From Phototrophicus methaneseepsis (lineage in GTDB: Bacteria; Chloroflexota; Anaerolineae; Aggregatilineales; Phototrophicaceae), in NCBI RefSeq assembly GCF_015500095.1, contig NZ_CP062983.1, positions 2,604,001 to 2,668,000 on the forward strand: DNA of 64,000 bases, in the 5' to 3' direction. Of the stretch, positions 1 to 41,254 are shown one piece after another. The position numbers and the translations under genes were made by a program. The notes under the pieces were generated by a model. The model was not told the DNA's origin, did no database searches, and saw only the letters and a list, made by a program, of their open reading frames with translations. Position 1 is the first letter of the stretch. Each line of letters opens with the position of its first letter.

Positions 1-307
1 TGACGAGCGATATGGAGATCGGGAAGAAGCCAACAATCATCAGGAAGAAGGGCACTGTGCGCTCACCGATCAGCGAAGCGCCATAGCCAGCCACAAACCC
101 TGAGACTTGTTGCGCGATGAATTGGGCAATAGCTGGGAAAACCAACGTCAGCACGATAATCGGCGTCAGGATGCGCCAATCTCGGAAGCTATCACGGACT
201 TCTCGGCGCGTGATGATGAGCGCATTTCGTAACGATGAACGCCGGGTCGAGCTAGTAGCATCCTGGGCCAGCATAGGTTCTGTAGGTTGGTAGGATAGAT
301 GCGTCAT
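1..307 (-). CDS. ABC-2 type transporter permease, 5' part only
   Basis: This gene runs off the left edge; only about the first 102 residues are visible. The protein starts with a cytoplasmic stretch of about 30 residues, then a segment ending in ITRREVRDSFRDWRI. That motif is typical of the cytoplasmic lead-in to the first helix of ABC-2/NatB-type export permeases. It is followed by a hydrophobic helix (TPIIVLTLVFPAIAQFI) and a second hydrophobic stretch. The start is the ATG whose complement is at 305-307, read from manual translation. The ATPase gene lies 22 bases upstream on the same strand, so ATPase then permease form one transcription unit. The substrate (ions, drugs or an envelope compound) cannot be told from this fragment. 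Confidence 0.8.
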   Translation of the reverse strand, partial: MTHLSYQPTEPMLAQDATSSTRRSSLRNALIITRREVRDSFRDWRILTPIIVLTLVFPAIAQFIAQQVSGFVAGYGASLIGERTVPFFLMIVGFFPISISLV

Positions 308-329
308 AGTGGCTGTGTGATCGTCTCTT

Positions 330-1283
330 TTATTCAGTCGCTGATGGGTCTGGTTGATGAAGCTGGGCTTCGTCTTCTGCGACGACTTGCAGATAAATAT
401 CTTCGAGCGTCTGGGTGAGGGGCGAGAGTGTGACGACTGCGACACCCAGGGCCGCACAGCGTGCCAATACCTGCGGATTCGCTGTGTAAGGGTCCGGGGT
501 ATGGTATTGCAGCCAGTTGGGGCCGCTGCTCGCAACATCAACCAGATCTGTGAGATCTGAGGCAAGGCCATTTAAGCTGCCGTTGATGCGCAGCTCCATG
601 CGTGGTTGACCGATGAAATGCTGGGCCAGCTCATCAATGGTGCCATTTGCGATGATGCGCCCACGTCGAATAATGGCGATACGATCTGCAAGGAGTTGTG
701 CTTCCGTCAGGTTATGTGTGGTAATGAGGAAGGTTCGCTCACCTTTTTGCAGGTCGATGATGGCATCTCGCACCTGTTTTGCGCTCTGGGGGTCCATTGC
801 GGAAGTCGGCTCGTCGAGTAAGAGAACGCGCGGGTCATGTATCATAGCGCGGACGAGGGCTAGCTTTTGTTTCATCCCCTTACTGTATTCACCAATGCGG
901 CGATCAAGCGCATCTTCCAGGCCAAAACGCGCCATCAGGTCAAGTGCGCGTCGCTGACGTAAATCGCGCGGCATATGGTACACCTGGCCGAAGAAGTCAA
1001 GATAATCTAGGCCCTTCATGCGTTCGTATAAGCCGTGCTGTTCTGTCAGTACGCCCACGTGCTCTCGCACGCGCTCCGGTTGTTTGACGACATCAAAGCC
1101 CGCGATCTGTGCACTGCCGGATGTCGGGGCCAGGATGGACGTCATCATGCGGACGGTGGTCGTTTTGCCTGCACCATTTGGCCCTAGCATCGCCAGGACT
1201 TCGCCCGGTTCCACATGCAGGGTTACGCGGTCGACCGCGCGGAAATCATCAAAATATTTGGTTAGCTGCTCTGTCTCGATCAA
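330..1283 (-). CDS. ABC transporter ATP-binding protein (NatA/CcmA type)
   Basis: Cytoplasmic ATPase of an ABC-2 exporter, paired with the permease that follows it. From the proposed start (317 residues) I see Walker A GPNGAGKT near residues 34-41, a signature variant YSKGMKQK, Walker B VLLLDEPTSAMDP and the switch histidine in LITTHNL. A C-terminal region of about 90 residues after the nucleotide-binding domain resembles the DUF4162-type tail of this family. The open frame extends 60 codons further upstream (to 1463), but that stretch is Arg/Ser-rich and unlike ABC proteins. I therefore place the start at TTG 1283, just before IETEQLTKYF, the usual beginning of the domain. No strong ribosome site supports it, so the start is the weak point. 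Confidence 0.88.
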   Translation of the reverse strand: MIETEQLTKYFDDFRAVDRVTLHVEPGEVLAMLGPNGAGKTTTVRMMTSILAPTSGSAQIAGFDVVKQPERVREHVGVLTEQHGLYERMKGLDYLDFFGQVYHMPRDLRQRRALDLMARFGLEDALDRRIGEYSKGMKQKLALVRAMIHDPRVLLLDEPTSAMDPQSAKQVRDAIIDLQKGERTFLITTHNLTEAQLLADRIAIIRRGRIIANGTIDELAQHFIGQPRMELRINGSLNGLASDLTDLVDVASSGPNWLQYHTPDPYTANPQVLARCAALGVAVVTLSPLTQTLEDIYLQVVAEDEAQLHQPDPSATE

Positions 1284-1998: not shown

Positions 1999-3120
1999 TT
2001 AGTGAACAGGCTCCGCATGGGCGGAATCTCTGGATGGGCTCGGCTTAGATTGTTGAGGGACCTCTGCCGCTGCTGCACGGCGGCCACCACGCCCGCGCCA
2101 GATGTAGACGCCCAATGCCAGCAAGAATGTGACAACCGTCATAGCCTGTGAGCTGTTGATGGTCGTACCAGGGATATAAGCCACTTCGATACGCAGGAAT
2201 TCCAGCAAGAAGCGGATGACCGAGTACTGCATGACGTAAATCAAGAACAGGTCGCCATTCAGGAAGCGATTCTTATAGCGTGTGTACAGAATATACAGCA
2301 CGACGAAGGCAATGGCGCTCCAGATCGCTTCGTATAAGAAAATGGGGTGGAAGAGCGTGTCCGCCGGGTATTCAACGAGGCTGGCGTATTCACCCGTGCG
2401 CTTGCTAGCGTCAATGGTGATGCCCCAGAATGAAGACCCTGTCGGCAGGCCATACAGCTCTTGATTGACATAATTTGCCCAGCGCCCAATTGCTTGTGCT
2501 AATGGCAGTGCCACAGCAGCGATATCCAGCCAGGGCTTATAGTCGATACCTTCATCCGGGAACTCCGGCTCAAATTTGGGAATGCTATAAGGCTCGACTT
2601 CTTCGCCGCGAATACGCTGGTACAGCGCTTCAATCGCCCAGAAAATGAATGTTAGCGGGATGGCAATGGGCAGGAAGATGTAGTGGAAAACGCGCGAAAT
2701 AGAATTGTGGAAGCGGCTGGTATACAGCCATGCGCCCAGTGCGCCACCCAGGACTGCGCCAAAGATGCTCAGGCCACCATTCCAGATAGCGATTGCCCCA
2801 TTGGTCGTGTTAAAGAAGTTTTGCAGGAACCAGGCGGTATCCATACAGACTCTTGTGCTGTTTGGGTCGCCACAACCCGCCGTCAGGCTGATGGGTGGGA
2901 AGAGGACAAACCAAAGGCGCGCAGCGATAATGCCGGGGAAGATAGCCCATGTCAGGCCGCCCCATACATGATCCGGGTTGAGCTTCCGGCTGCTGGCAAG
3001 GCGTGCGGCGACATAAGCCGCAATGATCATCGCGGTGACGATGATGATGCCATAGTAGCGGATTTGCAGATCCCCCAGGAATGTGCCGCGCAGTAATATA
3101 TATTCTGCTTCAAATTCCAT
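1999..3120 (-). CDS. lgt: prolipoprotein diacylglyceryl transferase Lgt
   Basis: Transfers diacylglycerol from phosphatidylglycerol to the lipobox cysteine of prelipoproteins in the cytoplasmic membrane. At 373 residues it is polytopic and carries the Lgt signature as AIGRWANYVNQELYG (family form GR-GN--N-E--G), plus the HPIFLYEAIWS motif. It is longer than the usual 260-300 residues. The excess is a charged insertion of about 40 residues after LPIAIPLTFIFWAIEALYQ and a hydrophilic Ala/Pro/Ser-rich C-terminal tail of about 35 residues. It starts 3 bases after the stop of the CDP-alcohol phosphatidyltransferase gene, so the two are co-transcribed. The neighbour could supply the phospholipid from which Lgt takes its acyl donor. 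At least one lipoprotein with a lipobox is encoded in this window (25121-26308). Confidence 0.93.
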   Translation of the reverse strand: MEFEAEYILLRGTFLGDLQIRYYGIIIVTAMIIAAYVAARLASSRKLNPDHVWGGLTWAIFPGIIAARLWFVLFPPISLTAGCGDPNSTRVCMDTAWFLQNFFNTTNGAIAIWNGGLSIFGAVLGGALGAWLYTSRFHNSISRVFHYIFLPIAIPLTFIFWAIEALYQRIRGEEVEPYSIPKFEPEFPDEGIDYKPWLDIAAVALPLAQAIGRWANYVNQELYGLPTGSSFWGITIDASKRTGEYASLVEYPADTLFHPIFLYEAIWSAIAFVVLYILYTRYKNRFLNGDLFLIYVMQYSVIRFLLEFLRIEVAYIPGTTINSSQAMTVVTFLLALGVYIWRGRGGRRAAAAEVPQQSKPSPSRDSAHAEPVH

Positions 3121-11990: not shown

Positions 11991-13013
11991 GTGGTGAGAC
12001 GCATAAGTGTGCTTGTTCTTGCACTCGTTTTTGTGCTGGGCGCGTCTGTAGTTGGCGCGCAAGACCTGGGAACTGAAGAAAATCCCATCCAAGTATTTTT
12101 TGTGCCATCCGCAGAAGCGCAAACGTTAATTACAGGTGGTGAAGTCCTGGCAGAAGCTTTGACAGAAGCAACTGGCCTGAGCTTCGAAGTTTCCGTCCCG
12201 ACAAGCTATGCCTCGACCATTGAGGCGATGTGCGCCGATCCAGAACGCAGCATGGGCTTTATCCCGGCGGCAGGGTATGTCATCGGTAACAACCGCTGTG
12301 ATCTGGAAGTCTATGCAGCCGCTGTCCGCTTCGGCTGGCCTGTTTACTGGGCTGAGTACATCGTCCGCCGTGACAGTGATATTTATACCTTTGCTGACTT
12401 AGAGGGCCGTAGCTGGGCATACCCGGATCGCGGTTCTACCTCTGGCTTCTTGTTCCCCTCAGTCGAGATGCAGGCTGCTGGCATTACGGCAGGTGAAGAA
12501 GTTGAAGCAGGTGGTCACGGTCAGGCTGTGCTAGCGGTATACAACGGTGAGGCCGACTTCGCGACTGTTTATTTCAGCGCCCCGCTAACGCCGGGTGGTG
12601 CCTGGGATTATGGTGACCTGCCGGAACCGTATGACCTGACTGTGGAAGATGCTTTCGTGGATGACGAAGGCGACCTGTATGTAGGCGAAACCCGCATCCT
12701 GGATGCGCGTTCTGCTGTTGCGGAACAGGCCCCTGATGTGGTTGATGAAGTGCGTATCCTGCGCCTGAGCAACCCGATTCCGAACGATACCATGAGCTTT
12801 GGCCCAGATTTCCCGCCGGAACTGCGTGACCAGATTTATGATGCGCTGGTGGCATTCTCCGAAACAGACGCCTGGGCGGAAACAGCCCTTGGCAGCTCTG
12901 AGGGCTATGACTGGACTGGGCTGGAAGTCGTCCCGGATAGCAACTATGACATCATTCGCCTGCAATTCGAAATCCTTGGTCTGACGGAAGAAGACATCTT
13001 CGCTGACGGCTAA
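11991..13013 (+). CDS. phosphonate/phosphite-type ABC transporter substrate-binding protein (PhnD-like)
   Basis: Secreted type-2 periplasmic-binding-fold protein of 340 residues. A Sec signal peptide covers about residues 1-23, ending SVVGA-QD. The core has family landmarks: PIQVFFVPSAEA near the N-terminus, VSVPTSYASTIEAM, and DLEGRSWAYPDRGSTSGFLFPSVEM, which matches the PhnD/PtxB ligand-binding loop. It starts at GTG 11991 or 11994 with AAAAGGAG upstream. It is the first gene of a binding protein, ATPase, permease operon, separated from the rest by a hairpin. The ligand could be phosphonate, phosphite, phosphate or a related oxyanion; residues alone do not decide. Confidence 0.87.
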   Translation: MVRRISVLVLALVFVLGASVVGAQDLGTEENPIQVFFVPSAEAQTLITGGEVLAEALTEATGLSFEVSVPTSYASTIEAMCADPERSMGFIPAAGYVIGNNRCDLEVYAAAVRFGWPVYWAEYIVRRDSDIYTFADLEGRSWAYPDRGSTSGFLFPSVEMQAAGITAGEEVEAGGHGQAVLAVYNGEADFATVYFSAPLTPGGAWDYGDLPEPYDLTVEDAFVDDEGDLYVGETRILDARSAVAEQAPDVVDEVRILRLSNPIPNDTMSFGPDFPPELRDQIYDALVAFSETDAWAETALGSSEGYDWTGLEVVPDSNYDIIRLQFEILGLTEEDIFADG

Positions 13014-13162: not shown

Positions 13163-13921
13163 ATGCTCATCATAGAAAACCTGACCCACGTTTATGAAAA
13201 TGGATTTAAAGCGCTTGATAACGTCAGCTTTGAAGTGCCAGACGGGCAGTTCGTCGCGCTGATTGGCTTGAGCGGCTCTGGTAAATCGACGCTGCTGCGC
13301 TGTATTAACCGCTTGCTAGAGCCAACGAGTGGCCGCATTATCTGGAATGGCTTGGATGTAACGGCTATCAGTGACGAAGAAATCCGGTATTTACGCCGCC
13401 GGATTGGCATGATCTTCCAGCAGTTCAACCTGGTGAAGCGCTCCAAAGTTATTACTAATGTGCTGACGGGACGCCTGGGGTATACCAGCCCGCTCTACAG
13501 CTTCATCAATTATTTCCCGAAGTCTGAGCGTGATAAAGCGTTGGCGAATTTGCAGCGTGTAGGGATCGGCAGTCAGGCATATAAACGAGCCAGTGAGCTT
13601 TCTGGTGGGCAGCAGCAGCGCGTCGCTATCGCAAGGGCTTTGATGCAGGACCCGGAACTGATGCTGGCAGATGAGCCTGTCGCCAGTTTGGACCCGGCGA
13701 CATCGCATAGTGTGATGAAATACCTGGATTTACTGAATACAGAAGATGGTTTGACGATTTTGTGTAGTTTACATTTTTTGAGCTTGGCCCGTACGTATGC
13801 GGACCGTGTCATTGCACTGAAAGATGGCCAATTGGCCTTTGATGGGACGCCCGAAGAAATCGATAACGCACGGTTTAAAGAAATTTACGGGGAAGATGCT
13901 GTTGAAGTGGGCATTTCTTAG
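13163..13921 (+). CDS. phosphonate-type ABC transporter ATP-binding protein (PhnC-like)
   Basis: A 252-residue importer ATPase. Walker A is GLSGSGKST, the Q-loop IGMIFQQFNLVKR, the signature ELSGGQQQRVAIARAL, Walker B LMLADEPVASLDP and the switch His in CSLHFLSLA. The NVLTGRLGYTSPLYSFIN segment after the Q-loop is characteristic of PhnC/PtxA proteins and distinguishes them from amino-acid importers. It lies 11 bases before the permease gene. Together with the preceding binding protein it forms a complete importer. Confidence 0.92.
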   Translation: MLIIENLTHVYENGFKALDNVSFEVPDGQFVALIGLSGSGKSTLLRCINRLLEPTSGRIIWNGLDVTAISDEEIRYLRRRIGMIFQQFNLVKRSKVITNVLTGRLGYTSPLYSFINYFPKSERDKALANLQRVGIGSQAYKRASELSGGQQQRVAIARALMQDPELMLADEPVASLDPATSHSVMKYLDLLNTEDGLTILCSLHFLSLARTYADRVIALKDGQLAFDGTPEEIDNARFKEIYGEDAVEVGIS

Positions 13922-13932
13922 GAGGCGACCCG

Positions 13933-16158
13933 ATGAGTATGAAGCCAGAATCAACGCCTGAATCTGATTCGCGGAGAGCGTTGCAGCGATTACTAATTGT
14001 GCTCGCCATTGTTGTGGGGGCTTTAATTTACTCTTACGGTTGGGCTGTGACGGAAATCGACCTCAGCTTACCGCAGGAGGAACGACGCCAGGAGAATGTG
14101 ACGCGTGCTTTGCGCGAGCTCTTGTCGCCGCATATTTTTGACCAAGAGCGCGAAGTTGAAAGCTTCTCTGCCTCGATCTTGATCGGCTGTGACACCGCGA
14201 CACCACCAGAAGAGCCGGAAAACATGGGTGAACCCATGTTGATTGTCGAGCCTACATGTGCGGAACCGGACGACGTGGTGACGGTGCGCGCTTTGAATAT
14301 GGAGCCGGGGTCTGATGCACGCTTGCGCTGGGTTCCGCCGCCAGATGAAGATGGTGAACCCGCCACAGAACGCCCGTTGGAAGTGCTCAGCCTGGAACGA
14401 GAAGAATTTGTTATTGATGGGGATGGCAACTTTACGGGGACGGTGGAAGTGCCTCGCATCCGGGGCGGCGAAGGGCAATTACACGATGTTCGCCTACTGA
14501 TTGCGGTGCCTGCTGGCCCCATCGAACTTAGCGAAACAGCAGAACTCGTCATTGACCGCATGGTGCAGACGATCTTCATGGCGCTGGTAGCGACGACAGT
14601 CGCAATCCCGATTGCTGCCTTGATCAGTTTCTTCGCGGCGCGCAATCTCATGCGCCGGGTGCGGCTTTCTGTCGGGACGATGCTGCTCTCTTTCATTATG
14701 CTGGTGCTTGGCTTCGTGCTTGGCAATCAGCTCGTCGTATTCATCGGCCAGGCAGGGTTGCAAATTGGTCAGGGGGATTTATTCCAGCCCATTGGGGCAC
14801 TGATGGCTTTTGTGATTCCGGCTGCTGTGTTGGCGATTGTGATTTTCGTCTTGGGTCGGCTGGATACGGCGTCGGCTGGCAAGGGGCCTGATGAGGCATC
14901 TCATCTTTTACAGGCTGTGAATATGGTCATTATCACGTTGACGGTGATCTTCATCGTGGGGGCGATTGGTGGGCTTGGCATCTTAGGCGGCGAGCAAATC
15001 ACGGCACTTGGCGATTCTTTACGACCTGATGCCGCCACAGACCTAGGGAGTTGGCTGGTGCAGGCGGCTGGTAATTTGATCTGGTCGCTAGGCAACATCT
15101 TGTTGATCCTGGGTACCCTGGTTGAGCTTTTCATTGGTCCAATTACGGGTGCAATTACGGCCTTTGCGCTATCTGGTCTGGCCGGATCCCTGTTTGGTAA
15201 CCGGCTGCGTCGTATTAAAGGCGTGCCGGGACATATCCTGGGCGGTATTCTGGGGGCGATCAGTGGCGCTATGCTGATGGCAATTGTCAGTATGCTGGGC
15301 CTCTGGGCGGCCTTATTCGGCCTGCTGCCGGTTTTCTTCGGTGGCTTGCTGGGGGGGCAGGTGCTGCTGCATGCTTATCGGTTTGTCCAGGCTTCTGTAC
15401 CGTCCTTGCCGGCTTTAAACCCAATGTCTCGGATGGGGCGTTTCCTCAGGCAGGTCATCTATTGGGTGGGCTTCGTGATTGTCGCGGTTTTCCTGTTCGA
15501 TCAACTGAACCTGACGCGCTCACTGGTTGATGGTACGCTGCCGCCCCAAACACAGGTGAACTTGCTGGGGACCTGGCTGCCTATCACACACTATACCTTT
15601 GTAAACGCAATGGTCGGCGCGGTGCTGGCAGGCATTATTGGCTTATCTTCCAGCGTGCAGGGTGTGTTCCCCTTAGGGAATATGCTCTATAACACCTCCC
15701 GCACCATCTTGAACATCGTTCGTTCAATTGAACCTTTGATTATGGGCCTCGTGTTCGTGATCTGGGTGGGTATTGGCCCATTTGCAGGTGTGTTGGCGCT
15801 GACGCTGCACAGTATTGCGGCTTTGGGCAAGCTCTACAGCGAGCAGATCGAAAATATCGATCCTGGGCCGTTGGAAGCCCTGCAATCGACCGGGGCGAAC
15901 CAACTCCAGACGATTATCTATTCTGTTGTGCCGCAGATCGTACCGCCTTATATCGCCTTCACAATGTACCGCTGGGATATCAACGTGCGTATGTCGACGA
16001 TCATCGGCTTCGTGGGCGGCGGTGGCATTGGCTTGTTGCTGCAACAGCAGATTAACCTGCTGCGTTATTCTGATGCAGGCGTGGCTGTGCTGGCGATTGC
16101 GCTGGTTGTCTCCATCCTGGATTACTTGAGTGCATCAATCCGCGAACGGCTGACATAA
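13933..16158 (+). CDS. PhnE-like ABC permease with ectodomain and large internal membrane insertion
   Basis: 741 residues against about 260-290 for ordinary PhnE permeases. Layout from the sequence: a first helix at about 19-36, an extracytoplasmic domain at about 45-205 (Glu/Pro-rich, beta-like), and the first PhnE core helix ending in SFFAARNLMRR (about 212-242). Then comes an extra block (about 243-575) with several hydrophobic helices and Gly-rich stretches. The PhnE core resumes with GNMLYNTSRTILNIVRSIEPLIMGLVFV, followed by GPFAGVLAL and the EAA-type coupling loop (about 645-670). The core is therefore split by roughly 330 residues. The reading frame is uninterrupted, so this is not a sequencing join. 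AGGAGG precedes ATG 13933. It forms the membrane channel of the importer with the PhnC-like ATPase. Confidence 0.85.
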   Translation: MSMKPESTPESDSRRALQRLLIVLAIVVGALIYSYGWAVTEIDLSLPQEERRQENVTRALRELLSPHIFDQEREVESFSASILIGCDTATPPEEPENMGEPMLIVEPTCAEPDDVVTVRALNMEPGSDARLRWVPPPDEDGEPATERPLEVLSLEREEFVIDGDGNFTGTVEVPRIRGGEGQLHDVRLLIAVPAGPIELSETAELVIDRMVQTIFMALVATTVAIPIAALISFFAARNLMRRVRLSVGTMLLSFIMLVLGFVLGNQLVVFIGQAGLQIGQGDLFQPIGALMAFVIPAAVLAIVIFVLGRLDTASAGKGPDEASHLLQAVNMVIITLTVIFIVGAIGGLGILGGEQITALGDSLRPDAATDLGSWLVQAAGNLIWSLGNILLILGTLVELFIGPITGAITAFALSGLAGSLFGNRLRRIKGVPGHILGGILGAISGAMLMAIVSMLGLWAALFGLLPVFFGGLLGGQVLLHAYRFVQASVPSLPALNPMSRMGRFLRQVIYWVGFVIVAVFLFDQLNLTRSLVDGTLPPQTQVNLLGTWLPITHYTFVNAMVGAVLAGIIGLSSSVQGVFPLGNMLYNTSRTILNIVRSIEPLIMGLVFVIWVGIGPFAGVLALTLHSIAALGKLYSEQIENIDPGPLEALQSTGANQLQTIIYSVVPQIVPPYIAFTMYRWDINVRMSTIIGFVGGGGIGLLLQQQINLLRYSDAGVAVLAIALVVSILDYLSASIRERLT

Positions 16159-39958: not shown

Positions 39959-41254
39959 ATGCGACGTTTTGCACCCCTATTTCTGGTTAGTTTACTGATT
40001 GCACTTATTAGTGGGTCCGCCTTGGCCCAGGAAGAAACAACCGTCACATGGGCCTTCTGGGGCAGTCCTGAAGAGTTGGCGACCCATGAACAGGTTGCAG
40101 CCGCTTTTATGGAAGAATACCCGGACATCAACATTGAAATCTGGCATGCTCCCTGGTCAGATTACTTCACAAACATTCAGACGCTGTGGGCCTCTGGCGA
40201 TTCTTCGCAGATCCCGGATGTTGCATTCCTGACGCCGATCACCACCTATGCGTCGGATGGCGTTCTGGAGCCGCTGGATCCGTTCATTGAAGAAACTGGC
40301 TTTGACCGCGAAGATTTCTGGCCGGGTCTGCTGGAATATGCCATGTATGATGGCACCGTTTACGGCTTCCCGCGTGATATCAGCACAGAAGTCCTGTACT
40401 ACAACAAAGACATCTTCGACGAAGTCGGGCTTGAGTATCCCAATGAAGATTGGACGTGGGACGACCTGCTCGCTGCTGCTGAGCAATTGACGATTGCCGC
40501 GCCGAATGGCCGCGTCAGCCGTTACGCTCTGGGTATGGAAGGTGGTAAGTATCAGTTGTGGGTGGCCCAGAATAATGGTGGCATCCTCGATGATATGGTC
40601 AACCCGACGCGCTGCACCCTGACGGAACCGGAATCTGTGGAAGCTGTTCAATTCTTCGCGGATATGATGGCGAATAACTACGCGATGCCAGATGCGAACC
40701 TGAGCCAAGCTGGTGGTGATTCCGCTGTGTTCCAGAGTGGGCAGGCTGCAATGATCATCCAGAATGCAAGCCGCGTACCCGCTTTTAACAGCGCTGGCTT
40801 GAACTATGATATTGCTGTCGTCCCGATCCCAGAAGATGGTCATCGTGCGGCTTCCGCAGCAGGCGCTGCCTGGACGATGAGTGCCTTCAGCGATAACAAA
40901 GATGCTGCCTGGACCTTCCTGAGCTGGCTGCAAAGCACAGAGGGCGGTCAGGCAATTTACACGCAATCCGGCGAAATTGTCCCGGCTCTACGTTCAACAG
41001 CGAATTCTGACGTCTTCCTGGGCAGCGAAGAACCGCCCGTGAATCGTCAGGCTTTCATCACTGAAAGTGAAAGTGCGCAGGTTGGCCGTATTGGCTTGTT
41101 CCCGGAATGGAACGAACTGAACAGCACAATCATCAGCCCAGGGATGCAGACCATCTGGTCTGGCGAAGCTTCAGTTGAAGATGCTCTGGCGAGCATTTGT
41201 GAATCGACCGATGCCTTCCTGGCTGAACACGGTTACGGTGCTGAAACAGAGTAA
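39959..41254 (+). CDS. sugar ABC transporter substrate-binding protein (family 1)
   Basis: A 431-residue secreted binding protein. A Sec signal spans about 1-23 (ending ALAQ), with no lipobox. Family pattern: VTWAFWGSPEELATHEQVAAAFMEEYPDI at the N-terminus, LEPLDPFIEETG, VYGFPRDISTEVLYYNKDIFDEVG, FQSGQAAMIIQNASRVP and the lid region AASAAGAAWTMSAFSDNKDAAWTFL. It probably binds an oligosaccharide. ATG 39959 is preferred over 39953 because GAGGAG abuts the first ATG. It leads the importer genes. Confidence 0.93.
   Translation: MRRFAPLFLVSLLIALISGSALAQEETTVTWAFWGSPEELATHEQVAAAFMEEYPDINIEIWHAPWSDYFTNIQTLWASGDSSQIPDVAFLTPITTYASDGVLEPLDPFIEETGFDREDFWPGLLEYAMYDGTVYGFPRDISTEVLYYNKDIFDEVGLEYPNEDWTWDDLLAAAEQLTIAAPNGRVSRYALGMEGGKYQLWVAQNNGGILDDMVNPTRCTLTEPESVEAVQFFADMMANNYAMPDANLSQAGGDSAVFQSGQAAMIIQNASRVPAFNSAGLNYDIAVVPIPEDGHRAASAAGAAWTMSAFSDNKDAAWTFLSWLQSTEGGQAIYTQSGEIVPALRSTANSDVFLGSEEPPVNRQAFITESESAQVGRIGLFPEWNELNSTIISPGMQTIWSGEASVEDALASICESTDAFLAEHGYGAETE

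What the first reader, a model, noticed from the sequence alone, without database searches (positions are those of the whole stretch)
13933..16158. PhnE-like permease whose core is split by about 330 residues of extra membrane protein
The first core helix ends at about residue 242 (AARNLM) and the core resumes at about 580 (GNMLYNTSRTILNIVR). The block between contains several extra helices and Gly-rich turns. An additional 160-residue outer domain precedes the core. The reading frame is continuous. Ordinary PhnE proteins are about 260-290 residues and lack both.
Basis: partly seen in the sequence, partly recalled or inferred. Interest (0 to 1): 0.65.

Follow-up and report, generated by a model that had tools for sequence, protein, structure and literature searches.

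The report
Phosphonate-type permease with inserted membrane domain
A nutrient-import channel of the phosphonate family in a Chloroflexota bacterium carries an extra bundle of about eight membrane helices spliced into its core; the inserted part has no relative that we could find outside such channels, and its task is unknown.

Summary
Frame 13933-16158 is intact (741 aa) in a phnD-phnC-phnE operon: TM1, outer Ig-like domain (41-200), TM2 with AARNLM (201-242), insert (243-578), PhnE core TM3-TM6 (579-741). In 42 of 53 insert-free PhnE cores the AARN motif was found, 10-15 aa before the core; here it lies 348 aa before TM3. Profiles find PhnE TM2 and TM3-6 on the two sides and nothing PhnE-like in the insert, so a tandem copy is not detectable. 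The insert alone is predicted confidently (pLDDT 92) as about eight helices; PDB and viral-model searches give no trusted match. It occurs in 57 of 396 genomes of the window's class (two marginal), in all 48 inspected frames together with a PhnE core, and a core tree fits one origin. The outer domain is separate: insert-free relatives have it, and some insert-bearing genes lack it. Most likely a working homodimeric type I importer with a fast-evolving peripheral membrane module, probably scaffold or regulator. A new variant of a known kind, not found in the papers searched.

The parts
11991..13013 (+). phnD-like substrate-binding protein, 340 aa, signal peptide without lipobox
   Evidence: PF12974 E 1.7e-39; TIGR01098 149.3 bits, cut-off 112.05; N-terminus and STSG motif seen (role of the motif recalled)
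13163..13921 (+). phnC ATPase, 252 aa
   Evidence: TIGR02315 330.1 bits, cut-off 266.1
13933..16158 (+). PhnE-type permease, 741 aa, split by an insert
13966..14052 (+). TM1 (residues 12-40)
   Evidence: AlphaFold2 helix, hydrophobic
14053..14532 (+). outer Ig-like beta domain between TM1 and TM2 (residues 41-200), invariant C86 and C109
   Evidence: pLDDT 88-97 in blocks from 61 to 200; C86/C109 invariant in 75 rows; neocarzinostatin-type Ig-like folds Z 7.9, rmsd 2.5, 86 aa; related to the N-terminal domain of insert-free PhnEs, prob 99.5%, E 3.4e-23
14533..14658 (+). canonical PhnE TM2 ending in AARNLM (residues 201-242)
   Evidence: hhalign of residues 200-242 to insert-free PhnE prob 98.9%, E 3.5e-17
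14659..15666 (+). inserted membrane domain, about eight predicted helices (residues 243-578)
   Evidence: no PhnE relation; no NCBIfam match; window insert: only sub-threshold Pfam hits; pLDDT 92.1 alone; no trusted fold match
15313..15504 (+). helix pair i6-i7 (residues 461-524), present in the long type and missing in the short type
   Evidence: alignments, loop lengths
15667..16155 (+). PhnE core TM3-TM6 (residues 579-741)
   Evidence: PF00528 574-737 E 9.9e-14; hhalign of 582-741 to insert-free PhnE prob 100%
15832..15918 (+). EAA-type cytoplasmic coupling loop (residues 634-662)
   Evidence: 15 of its 29 residues invariant in 75 rows; name of the motif recalled

Best explanation
A functional type I ABC importer of the PhnDCE kind (substrate phosphate, phosphite or a phosphonate; not decided). 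SHOWN by sequence: TM2 and TM3-TM6 are ordinary PhnE; a 336-aa hydrophobic domain lies between them; in the frames inspected it always occurs together with a PhnE core, and a core tree fits one origin. INFERRED: two identical PhnE chains pair, since one PhnE gene with one coupling loop is present, and bind two PhnC. TM1, TM2 and TM3-6 rebuild the normal permease core. Each insert enters and leaves on the cytoplasmic side through an even number of helices (about eight here, six in the short type) and forms a lateral helix bundle beside the core. GUESSED: the bundle is a structural or regulatory skirt (dimer stability, lipid contact or damping of gating) rather than a second transport path, because its sequence drifts fast and its invariant and nearly invariant residues are glycines and one proline. 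The outer Ig-like domain, probably closed by a C86-C109 disulfide, sits where PhnD docks and probably helps docking.
For: PhnE, PhnC and PhnD assignments. In the 81 loci examined a PhnD recurs in 65 and an ABC ATPase (cluster not limited to PhnC) in 70; the next largest clusters hold 15 and 12 loci. TM2 and core are PhnE, insert is not. Spacing. Insert alone pLDDT 92.1, pTM 0.82. Positive-inside pattern: mean K+R in proposed inner loops 2.1, 1.8, 1.9, 3.5, 0.8, outer loops 0.4, 0.3, 0.1, 1.9, in 53 rows over 660 aa (L056, short type by spacing, among them). Tree: 50 insert rows on one side of a branch, SH-aLRT 99. Constraint lower in the insert than in the core but dN/dS below 1: against the same-genus relative 34% and 85% identity, dN/dS 0.49 and 0.08, dS near saturation. 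Invariant in 243-578: G260, G264, G562; nearly invariant P258, G394, G445, G566. One PhnE-level match in the genome. MetI is the top structural row for the whole model (Z 8.0, rmsd 10.3, 140 aa), weak, and only the end points 199..741 of the match are given.
Against: The whole-chain model is poor where it matters: 219-238 under 50, blocks of 581-700 between 41 and 73. Packing of the insert against the core and the rejoining of TM2 with TM3 are therefore not shown, and no complex was modelled. Three alignments carry the core back into the last insert helix: TIGR01097 520-740 to 31-251, MetI 544-732 to 10-202, and residues 490-741 to PhnE starting about 20 residues before the core. The i7-i8 outer loop has K+R 1.9, as high as some inner loops. 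The long helix 371-427 is counted as one pass; if it is two, the parity fails. Residues 281-320 are predicted at 63-69. No function of any member was found in print.
Confidence: 0.6

Rival explanations
1. Decayed tandem fusion: two PhnE copies in one frame, the first of which lost its core, so that 243-500 is worn-out TM3-6 of copy 1 and 505-741 is a complete copy 2.
For: Fused tandem PhnEs exist in the phylum (L117 874 aa, L118 903 aa, L119 713 aa). The helix count of the short type fits (TM1, TM2, four, two, four). TIGR01097 aligns 520-740 to positions 31-251, MetI aligns from 544, and the 490-741 profile aligns to PhnE from about 20 residues before the core.
Against: Insert against PhnE profiles: probability 0.1-0.4% for the whole and for 243-500 and 490-582. 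The back-extension is not constant: the second stretch starts at model position 31 in the window, 39 in L072, 65 in L047, 95 in L056. TM2 at 200-242 is the part that matches at 97-99%. The fused pairs seen keep both cores. The insert-bearing cores group apart from both copies of the fused pairs.
Confidence: 0.12
2. The insert is a former independent membrane protein (transporter, channel or sensor) captured whole that still does its own work, for example coupling import to an ion or sensing lipid or phosphate.
For: Confident prediction on its own, conserved topology, entry and exit on the same side, one origin fits.
Against: No stand-alone relative found: all 48 insert-bearing frames inspected also have the PhnE core; one match in the own genome; none in plasmids. 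Other phyla were not searched with the insert profile. No invariant or nearly invariant charged or polar residue. Fast drift.
Confidence: 0.2
3. The insert is a nearly neutral accretion of helix pairs in a loop that tolerates them, without a task.
For: Low conservation (mean column identity 29%), spacing from 231 to 388 aa, a two-helix size difference between groups, and shorter insert matches in one gene of three duplicated pairs (L183, L184, L186).
Against: No insert-free core falls inside the insert clade, the prediction is confident, dN/dS below 1 though near saturation, and both genes of the duplicated pairs keep it.
Confidence: 0.15
4. Assembly or frame artefact.
For: None beyond the odd size.
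Against: 75 aligned frames and 57 of 396 class genomes, two of them marginal, including the named strains Anaerolinea thermolimosa IMO-1 (L072) and Leptolinea tardivitalis YMTK-2 (L077).
Confidence: 0.01

Closest known systems
PhnE, phosphonate ABC transporter permease (NCBIfam TIGR01097)
   Same: TM2 with AARN motif, TM3-6 core, EAA loop, gene order with phnD and phnC; whole-protein score over the curated cut-off
   Different: 741 aa instead of a 252-position model; 336-aa membrane insert between TM2 and TM3; outer Ig-like domain between TM1 and TM2
Insert-free Chloroflexota PhnE with outer domain (such as L099-L111, L117, L118, L130; often gene pairs)
   Same: Related outer domain (prob 99.5%); the insert clade lies in one group (99) with 24 insert-free cores
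   Different: No insert: core starts 10-15 aa after AARN where that motif was matched; often two genes, so perhaps heterodimers
Short-type insert PhnE, about 605 aa, e.g. Anaerolinea thermolimosa (L072)
   Same: Same architecture and insert family
   Different: Six instead of eight insert helices by alignment; PhnD has a lipobox there
MetI and other type I ABC importer permeases with solved structures
   Same: Related core; phmmer E 2e-4 over 544-732
   Different: Much shorter (217 aa); no PDB chain matches the insert profile

Membership tests
PhnE (TIGR01097) | Score over the curated whole-protein cut-off | tested here: met
   234.2 against 216.7 bits, in two stretches; the C-terminal 242 residues alone 225.5
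PhnE (TIGR01097) | Conserved TM3-6 with EAA coupling loop | tested here: met
   hhalign prob 100%; 15 of 29 loop residues invariant
PhnE (TIGR01097) | Operon with PhnC ATPase and PhnD binding protein | tested here: met
PhnE (TIGR01097) | Transport of phosphonate, phosphite or phosphate | not testable with these tools
   PhnJ of C-P lyase not found in the genome (E. coli control positive), PstC present; substrate open
Type I ABC importer permease (BPD_transp_1, PF00528) | PF00528 domain over cut-off | tested here: met
   51.9 against 26.4 bits, 574-737. The usual short TM2-TM3 loop, typical but not part of the score rule, is absent: 348 aa spacing
Tandem-fused PhnE pair | Two PhnE cores in one frame | tested here: not met
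   One core only
Known membrane-domain families of Pfam (for the insert) | Match over a curated cut-off | tested here: not met
   0 families for the window insert at E 0.1; 16 families hit by 1 to 12 of 67 members, the most DUF1129 (12, best E 2.7e-4); its hit in L047 has 18.9 bits against a cut-off of 29.1
Known folds (for the insert) | Structural match in the PDB | tested here: inconclusive
   Foldseek best E 0.93; VIA best Z 7.7, inside the noise range given for helical models

The most novel reading that the evidence does not exclude
The insert is a membrane domain of a fold not yet solved, captured once between TM2 and TM3 of an ABC permease in one bacterial class, and it acts as a built-in regulatory or lipid-binding module that makes a homodimeric importer of about 28 helices: a way of enlarging ABC importer cores not described before.
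Probability: 0.3. Interest if true: 0.6.

Novelty: new variant of a known kind. Interest (0 to 1): 0.45.

Why it matters
From general knowledge, ABC importer permeases are usually enlarged at their ends or in outer loops. Here a whole helix bundle sits inside the conserved core, and the protein is kept under purifying selection with its operon, so it evidently still works. It offers a natural test of how far the permease core tolerates insertion, supplies a candidate new membrane fold, and warns that annotation as plain PhnE hides more than 400 residues of unexplained protein in this clade.

Tried and rejected
Tandem PhnE origin of the insert: not supported by profile comparison, see rivals for the results that lean the other way. 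A weak self-match inside the insert (second alignment E 0.0074, probability 5.3%) could be an internal repeat; not pursued.

Idea that the outer domain or the longer insert makes up for a missing lipid anchor of PhnD: of 57 PhnD proteins found by motif, no lipobox pattern was seen in 40 long-type rows including the window (one of them, L031, starts too early for the test), and one was seen in 17 short-type rows counting L056 (15 by pattern, L074 and L078 by eye). Rejected as a specific link: 20 of 20 SBP_bac_8 binding proteins inspected in the window's genome (of 32 matches) also lack a lipobox although LGT and LspA are present, and lipidated short-type systems have the outer domain as well. 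It looks like a lineage trait.

Fold of the insert: no match in the PDB or in viral models that I would trust; the colicin Ia and acetylcholine-receptor rows look like long-helix noise. Whether the fold is new stays open. DUF1129 hits were not taken as membership. Outer domain against PDB sequences: CD276 at E 0.0019, an Ig-type protein, and weaker rows judged chance; TIG in 1 of 32 members at E 0.11.

Class hits G451 and G538 (E 3-4e-4) dropped: their fetched stretches L188 and L187 showed neither insert nor core. Direction of the two-helix difference between long and short type cannot be told from sister groups.

Rows left out: 6 of 80 loci; 8 of 75 inserts, mostly near-copies, in alignment A2; 43 of 75 outer domains in A3; 73 of 166 cores by identity before the tree.

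Papers: searches (PhnE with Chloroflexi or Anaerolineae) gave 0 papers, 73 (PhnE with insertion and fusion) gave 1 (PMC3610870, title and start of abstract seen, judged unrelated); two gave 16 and 7, listings only. No paper was opened.

Full report
What is in the sequence. The frame 13933-16158 (+) is a single 741-residue protein. It starts 11 bases after a phnC ATPase gene (13163-13921), which follows a phnD-like binding-protein gene (11991-13013). Among 81 loci (80 relatives plus the window; simple gene calling, some loci cut) the permease cluster covers 78, an ABC ATPase cluster 70 (it also takes in other ABC ATPases) and PhnD 65; the next clusters hold 15 loci (minus-strand frames, probably spurious) and 12. 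The genome (G000, 5.63 Mb, one contig) gives one match to this protein and one PhnE match at this level, the others being much weaker.

The core is split. NCBIfam's PhnE model matches in two stretches. Fragment scans place positions 54-123 at residues 203-271 (1-500 alone, E 2e-6) and 31-251 at 520-740 (500-741 alone, E 7.2e-67), while 243-500 and 243-575 alone match no NCBIfam family. Profile alignment against insert-free PhnEs of the phylum (53 cores, or 15 proteins of 240-330 aa) gives: residues 200-242, 98.9% and 97.3%; residues 582-741, 100% twice; residues 243-578, 243-500 and 490-582, all between 0.1 and 0.4%. Three alignments run back from the core into the last insert helix; since 490-582 alone shows nothing, I take this as over-extension, but it is the best support for a decayed tandem copy.

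Comparison. In 42 of 53 insert-free cores the AARN pattern matched and lies 10-15 aa before the core start; 11 did not match the pattern, and for several of these the short junction was read by eye. In the 75 aligned insert-bearing proteins the N238-Y586 spacing is 231-237 aa (23 rows, short type) or 305-388 aa (52 rows, long type, window 348). Six of the 80 loci were left out.

Spread. The genome scan gave 192 pattern matches, 178 relatives, of which the best 80 were returned; 77 of 80 titles name Chloroflexota groups. Of the other three, 'Pleurocapsa minor' (L044) sits on a contig of 372,862 bases, the length of G441:C15, with the gene at the same place, and G441 is in the window's own family, so the label is almost certainly wrong; 'Bacteroidetes' (L012) and 'bacterium' (L056) were not resolved. 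That scan starts from peptides of the window protein and favours close relatives. The insert profile matched 12 of 400 phylum genomes at E 1e-5, all in the window's class, and 57 of 396 class genomes at E 1e-3. Stretches from 41 of the 57 were inspected: two marginal ones (L187, L188) showed nothing; in the rest 48 frames have insert and core, one (L185, at a contig start) a core and a cut front, none an insert without a core. The other 16 genomes were judged by their open frames only. Plasmids: no match. Other phyla were not surveyed with the insert profile.

History. On a quick tree of 93 cores (from 166, thinned by identity; insert columns not used; midpoint root, several long branches flagged) the 50 insert-bearing rows form one side of a branch, SH-aLRT 99, one change of label, against a mean of 31.3 in shuffles (0 of 500 as low). 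They lie in a larger group (99) with 24 insert-free cores. The N-terminal stretches of 30 insert-free proteins, most of them from that group, align with the window's outer domain at 99.5%, E 3.4e-23. The simplest reading is that the outer domain came first and the insert later, once. In ten genomes (nine of family f8, one of f122) two insert-bearing matches or neighbouring genes occur, and one gene of the pair lacks the outer domain (L177 and L181 read in full; others by the AARN position of 115-131). Long and short types are sister groups, so whether the helix pair i6-i7 was gained or lost cannot be said.

Structure. AlphaFold2 of the whole protein with 75 rows: mean pLDDT 81.7; outer domain 88-97; insert mostly 85-97 but 63-69 at 281-320; 219-238 and 669-685 under 50; blocks of 581-700 between 41 and 73. 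The insert alone with 67 rows: 92.1, pTM 0.82, helices at window residues 247-279, 286-313, 321-363, 371-426, 431-456, 461-488, 500-524 and 553-573 (shifted by 242). The helix 371-426 is long and is counted as one pass. Loop charges alternate as the positive-inside rule asks, with one ambiguous outer loop (i7-i8). The insert thus appears to start and end in the cytoplasm with eight helices, six in the short type, a parity that leaves TM3 in its normal orientation. Foldseek gives no PDB match to the insert (best E 0.93), the VIA rows (best Z 7.7) are in the range stated for unrelated helical models, viral models give nothing, and no PDB sequence matches its profile. The outer domain resembles neocarzinostatin-type Ig-like folds (Z 7.9, rmsd 2.5, 86 aa), which says fold, not function.

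Constraint. Against the same-genus protein of G618 the insert is 34% identical (dN/dS 0.49), the core 85% (0.08), TM2 72% (0.11); dS is near saturation, so ratios are rough. Invariant residues in the insert are G260, G264 and G562, with P258, G394, G445 and G566 nearly so. Conserved topology with drifting sequence and GxxxG in the first and last helix suggests a packed bundle whose ends lie together, a structural rather than a catalytic reading; this is inference.

How it probably works. A homodimer of PhnE with two PhnC and a secreted PhnD. The canonical helices make the pathway; the two inserts flank it in the membrane; the outer domains stand where PhnD docks. Substrate is open: PhnJ of C-P lyase was not found and the Pst system is present. 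A paper title in the listing (PMC10284923) describes a phnDCE binding protein as likely part of a phosphate transporter, which cautions against the name.

Verdict. It is a real, clade-specific variant of PhnE, not found in the papers searched, with a candidate new membrane domain. The task of that domain is not known and the whole-chain model is too weak to show its contacts, so interest is moderate.

Noticed in passing
L197:64-2250 (+), G000:C1 about 938257-940443 (outside the window): PstC of the same genome lies in a 729-aa frame with a PstS-like PBP_like_2 domain (128-369, E 4.6e-30) ahead of its core (520-726); the neighbouring PstA-like frame (L198, 565 aa) has its core only at 353-559. 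A phosphate permease with a built-in binding-protein domain.
   Followed up: partly
L136-L155 (G000), one of them in the window at about 40091-41011: 20 of 20 SBP_bac_8 binding proteins inspected (of 32 matches) lack a lipobox although LGT and LspA genes are present; binding proteins seem to be secreted without lipid anchor in this lineage.
   Followed up: partly
window 2098-3078 (-): Prolipoprotein diacylglyceryl transferase (LGT) gene in the window, matched in two pieces in one 374-aa frame; another LGT match lies elsewhere in the genome.
   Followed up: no
L117, L118, L119: Tandem PhnE pairs fused in one frame (874, 903, 713 aa) with both cores kept; in L117 and L118 both copies carry an outer domain.
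   Followed up: partly
L177-L186 (families f8 and f122): Adjacent PhnE genes that carry the insert, one of each pair without the outer domain; perhaps a heterodimer made by later duplication.
   Followed up: partly
L112-L114, L116, L124, L125, L128: Insert-free long PhnEs have a further N-terminal hydrophobic stretch with a PGLGQ motif before TM1.
   Followed up: no
   Followed up: partly
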